A stretch of 64,000 nucleotides of DNA from Pithys albifrons albifrons (lineage: Eukaryota > Chordata > Aves > Passeriformes > Thamnophilidae). A program made the translations under genes and the position numbers. The DNA is taken from contig NC_092487.1 of assembly GCF_047495875.1 (NCBI RefSeq), forward strand, positions 1 through 64,000, given 5' to 3'. A model generated the notes under the pieces. That model ran no database searches and was not told the origin of the DNA. It saw nothing but the letters and a program-made list of their open reading frames with translations. Shown here piece by piece: positions 8,101-14,100 of the stretch; within the stretch, counting starts at the first letter, position 1, and the number at the start of each line of letters is the position of its first letter.

Positions 8101-11100
8101 GGTGGGAGGGAGGTTTGGGTGAGTCTGGGCTAAGGCTGAGTTCGGCAAAGCAGGAAAAGGGCACAGAGAGGAGAGGAGGGCAAAGGGAGGGCAAAGGGGG
8201 CACAGAGAGGAGAGGAGGGCAAAGGGAGGGCAAAGGGGGCACAGAGAGGAGAGGGGAGGGCAAAGGGAGGGCAAAGGGAGGACAAAAGGGGGCACAGAGA
8301 GGAGAGGGGAGGGCAAAGGGAGGGCAAAGGGGGCACAGAGAGGAGAGGGAAGGGCAAAGGGAAGGCAAAGGGAGGACAAGAGGGGGCACAGAGAGGAGAG
8401 GGGAGGGCAAAGGGAGGGCAAAGGGGGCACAGAGAGGAGAGGAGGGCAAAGGGAGGGCAAAGGGGGCACAGAGAGGAGAGGGGAGGGCAAAGGGAGGGCA
8501 GAAGGGGGCACAGAGAGGAGAGGGGAGGGCAAAGGGAGGGCAAAGGGAGGACAGAGATGAGAGGGGAGGGCAAAGGGAGGGCAAAGGGGGCACAGAGAGG
8601 AGAGGGGAGGGCAAAGGGAGGGCAAAGGGGGCACAGAGATCAGAGGAGAGGGAAAAGGGGGCACAGAGAGGAGAGGGGAGGGCAAAGGGAAGGCAAAGGG
8701 AGGACAAAAGGGGGCACAGAGAGGAGAGGGGAGGGCAAAGGGAGGGCAAAGGGGGCACAGAGAAGAGAGGAAAAGACACAGGGAGGGCAAAGGGGGCACA
8801 GAGAGGAGAGGAAAAGACACAGGGAGGGCAAAGGGGGCACAGAGAAGAGAGGAAAAGACACAGGGAGGGCAAAGGGGGCACAGAGAAGAGAGGAAAAGAC
8901 ACAGGGAGGGCAAAGGGGGCACAGAGAGGAGAGGAAAAGACACAGGGAGGGCAAAGGGGGCACAGAGAAGAGAGGAAAAGACACAGGGAGGGCAAAGGGG
9001 GCACAGAGATAAGAGAAGAAGGCAAAGGGAGGGCAAAAGGGGCACAGAGAGGAGAGCAGAAAGAAAAGGGAGGGCAAAATGGGCACAGAGATAAGAGGAG
9101 AAGGCAAAGGGGGCACAGAAAGGAGACAAGAGGGCACAGGGGGCACAGAGGAGAGCAGATGGCACAGGGCAGGTGGGGGCTCACCCTCTCCGAGGGAATA
9201 GACCTTAAAGCCGGACATCTTCTTGGCCAGGACAGACTTGGGCAGGTTGAGCAGGGCCGGGTTGTAGACGGGGAAATCGTGGTAATAATTCTCCAGGATC
9301 CACACGGCCGCTCGTTGGATGCTGCAGGGCAGACACGGGCCGGGCACGGAGGGTGGGCAGTGCCAGGTGGGCAGGGGGCACACGGAGGGGCAGCAGGACA
9401 GGGAGGGAGAGAGAGAATCATGGAATCAGCTGGGTGGGAAGAGACCTCTGAGATCATCAAGTCCAACCCTTGATCCAACCCCAGTGTGATCACCAGATCA
9501 TGGCACTGAGTGCCATGTCCAGTTTCATCACCCACCAAAGCCCTCCAAGACCCTGAGGTGCCCAAACTGTAGGCCAAGAACCCACCAGAGCCCCTCCCAC
9601 ACCTAAGGTGGCCAACGTTGGAGACCAAGAACCCACCAAAGCCTTCCAAGCCCCTCCCATACTTGAGGTGCCCAACCAAGAACCCACTAAAGCCCTTCCC
9701 ATACCTGAGGTGCCCAAATTGTACACCAAGAACCCACCAGAGCCCCTTCCATACCTGAGATGCCCAAATTGTAGACCAAGAACCCACCAAAGCCCCTCCC
9801 ATACCTGAGGTGCCCAATGTTGAAGAACAAGAACCCACTAAAGCCCTTCCCATACCTGAGGTGCCCAACCAAGAACCCACCAAAGCCCTCCAAGACCCTT
9901 CCACACCTGAGGTGCCCAATGTTGTACACCAAGAACCCCCTCAAAGCCTTCCAAGCCCCTCCTCTACCTGAGGTGCCAAACCAAGAACCCACCAGAGCCC
10001 TTCCCATGCCTGAGATGCCCAAATTGTACACCAAGAACCCACCAAAGCCTTCCAAAGTCCCTCCCATACCTGAGGTGCCCAACCAAGAACCCACCAGAGC
10101 CCCTCCCATACCTGAGATGCCCAAATTGCACACCAAGAACCCACTAAAGCCCTCCAAGCCCCTCCCATACCTGAGGTGCCCAACGTTGGAGACCAAGAAC
10201 CCACCAGAGCCCCTCCCATACCTGAGGTGCCCAACCAAGAACCCCCCAAACCCTTCCAAGCCCCTCCCATACCTGAGGTTCCCAACCAAGAACCCACCAA
10301 ACCCTTCCAAGCCCCTCCCATATCTGAGGTTCCCAACCAAGAACCCACCAAAGCCCTCCAAGCCCCTCCCCCTACCTGAGGTGCCCAATGTTGTACACCA
10401 AGAACCCCCTCAAACCCTTCCAAGCCCCTCCCATAGCTGAAGTGCCCAACCAAGAACCCACCAGAGCCCCTCCCATACCTGAGATGCCGAAATTGTAGAC
10501 CAAGAACCCACCAAAGCCCTCCAAGCCCCTCCCATCCCTGAGGTGCCCAACGTTGGAGACCAAGAACACACCAAAGCCCCTTCCATACTTGATATGCCCA
10601 ATGTTGTACACCAAGAACCCACCAAAGCCCTCCAAGACCCTCCCATACCTGAGGTGCCCAATGTTGTACCAAGAACCCCCCCAGAGCCCTCCAAGCCCCT
10701 CCTCTACCTGAGGTGCCAAACCAAGAACCCACCAAAGTCCCTCCCCTACCTGAGGTGCCAAACCAAGAACCCACCAAAGTCCCTCCCATACCTGAGGTGC
10801 CCAAATTGGAGACCAAGAACCCACCAGAGCCCCTCCCATCCCTGAGGTGCCCAACCAAGAACCCACCAAAGCCCTTCCCATACCTGAGATGCCGAAATTG
10901 TAGACCAAGAACCCACCAAAGCCCTTCCCATACCTGAGATGCCCAAATTGGAGACCAAGAACCCACCAGAGCCCCTCCCATACCTGAAGTGCCCAACCAA
11001 GAACCCACCAAAGCCCTTCCCATACCTGAGATGCCCAAATTGTAGACCAAGAACCCACCAAAGCCCTCCAAGCCCCTCCCCTACCTGAGGTGCCTAATGT

Positions 11101-14100
11101 TGTACACCAAGAACCCCCCAAACCCTTCCAAGCCCCTCCCATACCTGAGGTTCCCAACCAAGAACCCCCCAAACCCTTCCAAGCCCCTCCCATACCTGAG
11201 GTGCCCAACCAAGAACCCACCAAAGCCCTCCAAGCCCCTCCCCTACCTGAGGTGCCCAATGTTGTACACCAAGAACCCCCCAAACCCTTCCAAGCCCCTC
11301 CCATACCTGAGATTCCCAACCAAGAACCCCCCAAACCCTTCCAAGCCCCTCCCATACCTGAGGTGGCCAACGTTGGAGACCAAGAAGCCACCAGAGCCCC
11401 TCCCATACCTGAGGTGCACAATGTTGTACACCAAGAACCCACCAAACCCTTCCAAGCCCCTCCCATACCTGAAGTGCCCAATGTTGTACACCAAGAACCC
11501 CCCAAACCCTTCCAAGCCCCTCCTCTACCTGAGGTGCCAAACCAAGAACCCCCCAAACCCTTCCAAGCCCCTCCCATACCTGAGGTGCCCAATGTTGTAC
11601 ACCAAGAACCCCCCAAACCCTTCCAAGCCCCTCCCATACCTGAGGTTCCCAACCAAGAACCCACCAAAGCCCTCCAAGCCCCTCCCCTACCTGAGGTGCC
11701 CAACCAAGAACCCACCAAAGCCCTCCAAGCCCCTCCCCTACCTGAGGTGCCCAATGTTGTACACCAAGAACCCCCCAGAGCCTTCCAAGCCCCTCCCATA
11801 CCTGAGGTGCCCAATGTTGTACACCAAGAACCCCCCAAACCCTTCCAAGCCCCTCCCATACCTGAGGTTCCCAACCAAGAACCCCCCAAACCCTTCCAAG
11901 CCCCTCCCCTACCTGAGGTGCCCCACGTTGTAGAAGCGACTGGCACCGTCGGCCGAGCGCACGGCCTTGAGGGTGAACTGGGGCTGCAGCTGGCGCAGCT
12001 CCAGCAGCACCAGTGCCAGGTAGTGCACGAAGAGCAGGGCGTCCACCAGCGACACCGCGAACTGCACCACGCCCTGGTAGTCGCGGTGCCGCGAGTCCAG
12101 GATCCGGACGCCGTAGAAGAGCCAGTAGGACACCACCAAGAGGAAGACCAACACCATGAGGAGGGCCCGGAAGACGAAGACGCGCGGGAGGAAGGCCTTG
12201 GGGCGGCGGAAGAACAGGGCCCAGCTGCCCAAGAGGAGGATGAGGAGTTTGAAGGCCACCGAGATGAAGAGCCCCTCGCAGGGCGTCCCGCAGGGCTCCA
12301 GCTCCTCCCTCCACAGCAGCTGGGGCAGCAGCATGAAGGCCAGGGGGGTGAGGAAGGCCAGCAGTGCCAGCGCCGCGCCCAGTGCCACGCCCAGGTGGCG
12401 GGAGCAGTCCAGGTGGGCGCTGTCCTCCATGTCCTTGGTGATGCGGGTGATGTCATCGTGGGAGATGCTGTGCTCCGACGTCCCCGTCACCACCGTGGTG
12501 GTCTCGCCCCAGTTGTCATCCTGGGGAGGGCACAGGTGGCAGGGGTTACACGGGGGGGGTGGTCCTCAAGAGGGTTGTGGGCACCCCAAGGGGGTGGTGC
12601 CCACACTGGAGCCCCTCACCCTAATTCCAGCCTGGAGCACTGTTGGGTGCCATCACCCCCAGTTGGGTGGTGGAAGATCAGACTGGGGGGATGCCAAGAT
12701 CCCACCCCAATTCCAGCATCCCACCCACCACACTTCAGTGCCAGGAGTGATGCCAGCCTGGGCTGGGGATGCAGAGATCCCATCCCAATTCCAGCATCCC
12801 ACCCACCACACGTGAGTGCCAGGAGCAATGCCAGGTGCCATCACCCACCCCATGTTGGGTGGTGGAAGCTCAGCCTGGGTTGGGGGCACACAGAGATTCC
12901 ACCCCAATTCCAGTGTTCCACCCACCACACCTTGATGCCCAGAGTGATGCCAGGCACCATCACCCCCAGTTGGATGGTGGAAGATCAGCCTGGGCTGGGG
13001 TGATGCCAAGATCCCACCCCAATTCCAGTGTCCCACCCAGCACAACTCAATGCCCAGAGCAATGCCAGGTGCCATCACCACCCCATTGTGTGGTCAAGCT
13101 CAGCCTGGGCTGGGCATTCCACCCACCACACTTCAATGCCAGGAGCAATGCCAGGTGCCATCACCCACCCCATGTTGGGTGGTGGAAGCTCAGCCTGGGC
13201 TGGGGGCACACCAAGATCCCACCCCAATTCCAGCATCCCACCCACCACACCTCAGTGCCAGGAGCAATGCCAGGTGCCATCACCCACCCCATGTTGGGTG
13301 GTGGAAGCTCAGCCTGGGCTGGGGGCACACCAAGATCCCACCCCAATTCCAGCATCCCACCCACCACACCTCAATGCCAGGAGCAATGCCAGGTGCCATC
13401 ACCCCCCATTGGGTGGTGGAAGCTCAGCCTGGGCTGGGGGCACACCAAGATTCCACCCCAATTCCAGCATCCCACCCACCACACCTCAATGCCAGGAGCA
13501 ATGCCAGGTGCCATCACCCCCCCCATTGGGTGGTCAAGCTCAGCCTGGGCTGGGCATTCCACCCACCACACTTCAATGCCAGGAGCAATGCCAGGTGCCA
13601 TCACCACCCCATTGGGTGGTCAAGCTCAGCCTGGGCTGGGCATCCCACCCACCACACTTCAATGCCAGGAGCAATGCCAGGTGCCATCACCCCCCATTGG
13701 GTGGTGGAAGCTCAGCCTCAGAGATCCCACCCCAATTCCAGCATCCCACCCACCACACCTCGATGCCAGGAGTGCTGCCAGGTGCCATCACCCCCTGCTT
13801 GGTGGGGGAGATGTCAAGACTTGGTCGGGACCTCCTGGAAAAGCCCCGGCCGGGGCTCCTTTCCGTGTTCCAGCACCGGCAAGAGCAGCTTGGGAAGTGG
13901 GAAGTCTCCTCCTCATTGGTGGGGCCAGAAGGAACATGCCCAGTTCCTGCCCCAACACAGCCAGGATGGAGTCCTTGGGATCTCCTCCCACCCCCAGAAC
14001 CTCCTCCTGCAGCCACAGAGGTGCCAAAACAACCTGGTCCTGTTTGACTCCTTCCCACACGTCTGTCTGTGTGTCCATCCTCTCCCACACCTGTCCCTGT

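What the first reader, a model, noticed from the sequence alone, without database searches (positions are those of the whole stretch)
9536..11935. A minisatellite in VANGL2 intron 4 multiplies the exon 4 splice donor about 45 times
Seen directly: exon 4 ends TACAACGTGGGGCACCTCAG before GTAGGG. The array units on the same strand end TACAACATTGGGCACCTCAG (18 of 20 identical) or TTGGGCACCTCAG before GTATGGG. The founder is the functional exon-intron junction itself. The VANGL2 pre-mRNA therefore offers dozens of decoy 5' splice sites just downstream of the true one, and the terminal exon peptide YNVGHL is echoed as YNIGHL. Inference: the decoys could buffer, slow or compete for U1, or yield exon-4-extended isoforms. 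The extension stays open in frame for long stretches because the units lack stops.
Basis: seen in the sequence. Interest (0 to 1): 0.88.

Follow-up and report, generated by a model that had tools for sequence, protein, structure and literature searches.

The report
Splice junction stuttered through VANGL2 intron
In this genome, a bird's by protein similarity, the end of a coding exon of the VANGL2 gene and its splice site recur as 44 whole or part copies down the next intron, likely the repeat "stuttering" known from chicken, and splicing from any copy would cut the protein short.

Summary
On the minus strand, VANGL2 exon 4 (12520-11913) ends TCTACAACGTGGGGCACCTCAG|GTAGGG, and a 2.4-kb array of 42-61-nt units starts at that junction and fills most of intron 4. 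It holds 44 further junction-like sites: 39 keep GT and 6 have the identical nine-letter donor. The exon end is the best array match of any 22-mer in the gene's coding exons (20/22, flush with the border), so the junction very probably founded the array.

Part of the reading fails. In VANGL2's frame the real donor itself creates a stop (AGG TAG), so any exon-4 extension ends YNVGHLR-stop. The copies would not generate open isoforms; leakage would give a truncated, probably decayed mRNA.

The phenomenon is in print as "exon stuttering" in chicken introns (Hron et al. 2026), and repeat-supplied donors are known in human IFI6. This case matches the definition, a repeat-rich setting and the ohnolog contrast (VANGL1 has no array), but scores below the published screen's cut-off (24.3 versus 42.1 bits), which suggests such cases are undercounted. 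No transcript data were available. New member of a known kind.

The parts
11913..12520 (-). VANGL2 exon 4 (608 nt), source exon
   Evidence: Spliced frame gives an intact 521-aa VANGL2; Pfam Strabismus match for a slightly shorter stretch
11913..11934 (-). Last 22 nt of exon 4, the exon part of the founder unit
   Evidence: Best exon 22-mer against the array, 20/22; match fades upstream of it
11907..11915 (-). True exon-4 donor CAG|GTAGGG
11909..11911 (-). In-frame stop TAG formed by the true donor (AGG TAG)
   Evidence: Open frame ends at 11909; YNVGHLR*
9530..11912 (-). Tandem array of 44 whole units plus a partial one, each bearing a junction-like CAG|GT site
11736..11744 (-). Copy donor identical to the true nine-mer
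11685..11693 (-). Copy donor identical to the true nine-mer
11241..11249 (-). Copy donor identical to the true nine-mer
11079..11087 (-). Copy donor identical to the true nine-mer
10744..10752 (-). Copy donor identical to the true nine-mer
10370..10378 (-). Copy donor identical to the true nine-mer
10538..10559 (-). Copy of the exon end matching 20 of 22
10171..10192 (-). Copy of the exon end matching 20 of 22
9185..9321 (-). VANGL2 exon 5, the acceptor partner

Best explanation
This is a tandem array likely seeded when the exon-4/intron-4 junction of VANGL2 was duplicated, and it is predicted to be mostly a by-product of local repeat instability rather than a splicing device. Shown: units contiguous with the junction carry its last 22 exonic letters (or only the last dozen or so) plus the donor, and the unit signature was found nowhere else in the genome. 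Inferred: tandem duplication across the border, then unequal exchange or gene conversion, spread the unit; the G-rich RNA-like strand may promote this. Inferred: splicing mostly uses the true donor, because only that joins exon 5 in VANGL2's frame without a stop. Predicted: use of a copy would extend exon 4 through the in-frame TAG made by the true donor, giving YNVGHLR-stop and an mRNA open to nonsense-mediated decay.
For: Exon-end match flush with the border and far above shuffles; array contiguous with the junction, whose first 30 intron letters match other units at up to 29 of 30; signature confined to this array; YNVGHL exact in 95 of 120 VANGL2-like proteins listed (counted), so the exon is the likely older copy; units nearest the exon most alike (0.831 versus 0.728 and 0.726; 0 of 2000 random sets as high), which suggests ongoing turnover; 23 quadruplex motifs on the RNA-like strand against a shuffle mean of 2.4 and maximum of 7; repeat-rich contig and repeat-free VANGL1 ohnolog; in-frame stop; same anatomy published for chicken.
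Against: No transcripts, no orthologous intron from a close relative and no population data, so direction, age and use are inferred. The exon-side similarity is short (22 nt). It fails the published screen's bit-score cut-off. In human IFI6 repeat donors are reported to be used, so silence of the copies cannot be assumed.
Confidence: 0.8

Rival explanations
1. The copies work: dozens of U1-binding sites just below the true donor compete with it, or act as a poison-splice rheostat that lowers VANGL2 output through nonsense-mediated decay, with the dose set by array length.
For: 32 decoys score close to the true donor and six are identical over nine letters; any use leads to the same stop; human IFI6 uses repeat units as donors.
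Against: No RNA evidence. No unusual conservation of the donor columns. Most decoys pair less well with U1 than the true donor.
Confidence: 0.1
2. Chance: an unrelated G-rich intronic minisatellite happens to resemble the exon end.
For: Only 22 nt of exon are involved, and AG|GT is a common motif.
Against: 20 of 22 flush with the border; shuffles reach 16; no other exon exceeds 15; the array begins at the junction itself.
Confidence: 0.02
3. Reverse flow: the array existed first and its sequence was converted into the exon end.
For: The intron side of the junction is nearly identical to other units, so conversion at the border is plausible.
Against: The exon end encodes YNVGHL, exact in 95 of 120 listed VANGL2-like proteins (counted), and none of the 240 fetched proteins shows the array peptides tested.
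Confidence: 0.03
4. Assembly artefact: copy number or order was altered by the assembler.
For: No reads could be inspected; GC-rich small bird chromosomes are described as hard to sequence (passage of PMC9974502).
Against: The units are diverged and distinguishable, in several length classes, so the array is not one block repeated; copy number could still be off.
Confidence: 0.05

Closest known systems
Exon stuttering / sequence stuttering of avian introns (Hron et al. 2026, Genome Biol Evol, PMC12954441)
   Same: Part of a coding exon with its splice donor tandemly copied through the adjacent intron; source flush with the exon border; imperfect units of tens of bases; setting rich in tandem repeats; ohnolog on a large chromosome without repeats (here).
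   Different: VANGL2 is not named in their main text (supplement not viewable). Exon part 22 nt and diverged, so it scores 24.3 bits against their cut-off of 42.1. Species not named here; dot status of the contig not established; length polymorphism untested.
Human IFI6 (G1P3, 6-16) minisatellite providing multiple splice donors (Turri et al. 1995; title and citing passage only; paper not held)
   Same: A minisatellite at an exon end whose units supply splice donors.
   Different: In IFI6 two downstream repeat units are reported to be used as donors, giving three mRNA species. Here use is unknown and an in-frame stop precedes the copies. Unit length and copy number of IFI6 were not checked.
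Intron gain by tandem genomic duplication of AGGT-bearing segments (e.g. PMC4974935; listing and start of abstract only)
   Same: Tandem duplication of a segment carrying AG|GT.
   Different: Here the segment lies at an existing exon border and the copies sit inside an old intron; no new intron is shown.

Membership tests
[quoted passage not shown]
[quoted passage not shown]
   Distance 0
Exon stuttering | Screen hit of at least 20 nt | tested here: met
   7 hits of exactly 20 nt at 90% with blastn-short, no dust, plus strand; 0 in one shuffled set
Exon stuttering | Screen bit score of at least 42.1 (a noise cut-off from their genome-wide shuffles, not part of the definition) | tested here: not met
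   Best 24.3 bits, equal to their median for random control hits; here noise was judged by local shuffles instead
Exon stuttering | Imperfect tandem units, under 20% edit distance from consensus (used for their PHF8 example) | tested here: inconclusive
   27 of 44 against one overall consensus; 40 of 44 against the consensus of their own length class
Exon stuttering | Ohnolog on another chromosome without repeats (shown by the authors for examples) | tested here: met
   VANGL1 on C1: 0% tandem repeat in a 9.9-kb stretch, exon end finds at most 14 of 22 in 9146 nt downstream
Exon stuttering | Location on a dot chromosome (190 of their 236 introns) | tested here: inconclusive
   C30 is 3.49 Mb and repeat-rich but unnamed; methylation and chromatin marks not available
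Exon stuttering | Intron length varies among individuals | not testable with these tools
   One assembly only
IFI6-type donor minisatellite | Units carry splice donors | tested here: met
   39 of 44 keep GT
IFI6-type donor minisatellite | Repeat donors are used in mRNA | not testable with these tools
   No transcripts held

The most novel reading that the evidence does not exclude
The stuttered junction is a length-encoded splicing rheostat: an evolving bank of some 40 donors, all locked by one in-frame stop to the same dead-end transcript, tunes the dose of a planar-cell-polarity gene between alleles and species.
Probability: 0.09. Interest if true: 0.8.

Novelty: new member of a known kind. 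Interest (0 to 1): 0.45.

Why it matters
If true, it adds a clear example of exon stuttering in a developmental gene and shows that the published cut-off misses arrays whose exon part is short and diverged. It is also a natural test of 5' splice-site choice: one real donor faces dozens of similar copies, six identical over nine letters, and any leak has the same readable outcome. If array length differs between alleles, it would be a natural dose series.

Tried and rejected
Exon-4 extensions with an open frame: rejected, TAG at once.

Units as in-frame cassette exons: 32 of 44 units are multiples of three and some runs are stop-free, but the units' AG has no clear pyrimidine tract (read by eye, not scored); not pursued.

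A dispersed origin of the unit: the signature was found only in this array, and no Rfam family reached its gathering score in the window. No transposon library was searched.

Array peptides in other species: a search with one array frame gave no hit at E 0.001 among the 7996 candidates scored, and none of the 240 fetched proteins holds the four array peptides tested. Of 60 proteins with a bird-like motif, 31 continue with SIQR, 4 end at the junction, 12 have no recognised junction and 13 continue otherwise; none of these 13 has a further YN[V/I]GHL. The motif also catches at least two frogs, and proteins stopped by a TAG donor could not show an array, so this is weak evidence of absence in other birds.

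An older donor state: read-through proteins of other vertebrates often begin RYG, which implies GTA[T/C]GG as in most units, but others begin RW or RC; no claim is made.

Selection on the copies: no signal.

Other VANGL2 junctions: the strict screen gave hits only for exon 4 in intron 4. With looser scoring 13 hits were exon 4 in intron 4 and 5 were weaker scattered pairs (exon 7 in intron 3 twice, exon 5 in intron 3 twice, exon 8 in intron 7 once).

A search for the feather-keratin family on C30, meant to link it to chicken chromosome 25 (recalled link), did not complete.

One search's exon-5 row uses a register one base off; the right donor G is at 9184. The donor weights, the U1 sequence and the human VANGL2 probe are recalled.
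Full report
What was checked. The window is the first 64 kb of contig C30 (3,488,239 bases) of a 1.144-Gb, 53-contig genome. In the full-length VANGL2 search the first 15 of the 120 listed hits are named birds at 94-97% identity. VANGL2 lies on the minus strand; its seven coding exons splice to an intact 521-residue protein.

The array. Intron 4 (11912-9322, 2591 nt) is mostly filled by a tandem array that begins at the exon border itself. 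There are 45 CAG|GT-like sites, the first being the real donor. The 44 complete units are mostly 42, 51 or 60 nt, some 50 or 59, with three of 52 or 61. The first 30 intron letters of the real junction match other units at up to 29 of 30. On the exon side the last 22 letters of exon 4 recur: 15 of 44 copies match 18-20 of 22 and 29 match 11-16; 19 of 44 units lack the TACAAC block and 9 more have a one-base deletion in it (counted). The similarity fades after letter 22.

Is it chance? No. Markov-shuffled arrays reach 16 of 22 at most (300 trials). The last 22-mer of exon 4 beats every other coding-exon 22-mer of the gene; the runners-up are its own overlapping neighbours, and no other exon exceeds 15. 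Nothing else in the window reaches 17 of 22. A 23-nt unit signature (up to 2 mismatches) has 29 matches in the genome, all in this array. The exon end encodes YNVGHL, exact in 95 of the 120 proteins listed (counted; 6 of the 120 had no recognised junction), so the exon is the likely source.

The donors. 39 of 44 copies keep GT; the others read GG (2), CT, AT and GC. Six copies have the true nine-mer CAGGTAGGG and 26 have CAGGTATGG. With a recalled weight matrix, 33 of the intron's 210 GTs (true donor included) score no more than 0.75 bit below the true donor, all in unit register; 500 Markov sequences gave a mean of 2.1 and a maximum of 7. Against equality, the computed U1 pairing energy is -11.2 for CAGGTAGGG and -7.7 for CAGGTATGG; this gene's exon-6 and exon-7 donors are weaker still (-7.3, -5.3).

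The reading frame. Exon 4 ends in phase 2. Read on, the true donor gives AGG TAG: YNVGHLR-stop. Decay of such mRNA is predicted from general knowledge (a stop well upstream of later exon junctions), not shown. VANGL1 in the same genome also has a donor that would give TAG (GTAGGT), so the stop need not be an adaptation. By contrast 9 mammalian VANGL2 entries carry an insert beginning with R after YNVGHL, as if exon 4 had been extended there by annotation or splicing; they show no array peptides.

Turnover and setting. The 15 units nearest the exon are the most alike (mean identity 0.831; 0.728 and 0.726 further away; 0 of 2000 random sets of 15 as high). The RNA-like strand of intron 4 holds 23 quadruplex motifs against a mean of 2.4 and a maximum of 7 in 200 shuffles. 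Tandem repeats (period 10 or more) cover 64% of the window and 34-66% of six adjoining 10-kb stretches. Seven stretches further along C30 gave 34, 65, 1, 0, 99, 100 and 81%, the last with 1761 N. Seven on C1-C3, the VANGL1 locus included, gave 0-3.5%. The ohnolog VANGL1 on C1 has no array: its exon end finds at most 14 of 22 in 9146 nt downstream.

Comparison with what is known. Hron et al. 2026 (PMC12954441; abstract and outline, passages, sections 7, 9 and 16 and part 1 of 2 of section 8) describe this in chicken: part of an exon, with its splice donor or acceptor, copied through the adjacent intron, in 236 introns of 115 genes, 190 of them on dot chromosomes. They report 1-44 copies (median 4), exon parts of 20-187 nt (median 36), length polymorphism, repeat-free ohnologs and potential alternative transcripts. 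The VANGL2 case meets their stated criterion but not their screen's noise cut-off (24.3 against 42.1 bits). Their main text does not name VANGL2; the supplement could not be opened. Human IFI6 is a precedent for repeat units used as donors (one sentence and a cited title in PMC4526556; passages in PMC2915984, PMC2572611 and PMC3618361 cite the same 1995 paper). Seven paper searches listed no paper on this array; four gave only the top 12-20 of longer lists, three returned none, and the library holds open-licence papers only.

Chicken chromosome 25, where I recall VANGL2 to lie, is described as not a true dot but sharing some features (passages of PMC12954441 and PMC9974502). Whether C30 corresponds to it was not established.

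Verdict. Real, well above chance and correctly placed. Origin from the junction is strongly supported. Function as decoys is untested and, for open isoforms, contradicted. It is a new member of a published kind with modest added value: a low-scoring, exon-anchored case in a developmental gene.

Noticed in passing
5982-6345: The (CCCAT)n array of intron 7 begins 4 bases after the exon-7 donor; no exon-7 copy was found in that intron. Intron 7 has 16 quadruplex motifs on the RNA-like strand.
   Followed up: partly
8072-9184: Intron 5 has 12 quadruplex motifs on the template strand and none on the RNA-like strand.
   Followed up: no
47726-48118: A plus-strand open frame containing MMLNSDQTDLELPPPP looks like the start of NHLH1 (recalled resemblance), a neighbour of VANGL2 in human as I recall.
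   Followed up: no
9415-9529: The stretch just beyond the array resembles the 3' end of an avian CR1 element (recalled, not searched).
   Followed up: no
L022, L023 (C30 at 2.5 and 3.0 Mb): These two 10-kb samples are 99-100% tandem repeat, while L020 and L021 (1.5 and 2.0 Mb) are under 1%.
   Followed up: no
L010, L011 (VANGL1 on C1): The VANGL1 exon-4 donor GTAGGT also creates an in-frame TAG directly after the exon.
   Followed up: partly
P0146, P0147, P0149-P0152, P0154, P0157, P0181: Nine mammalian VANGL2 entries have an insert beginning with R directly after YNVGHL, consistent with an extended exon 4 in their annotation.
   Followed up: no
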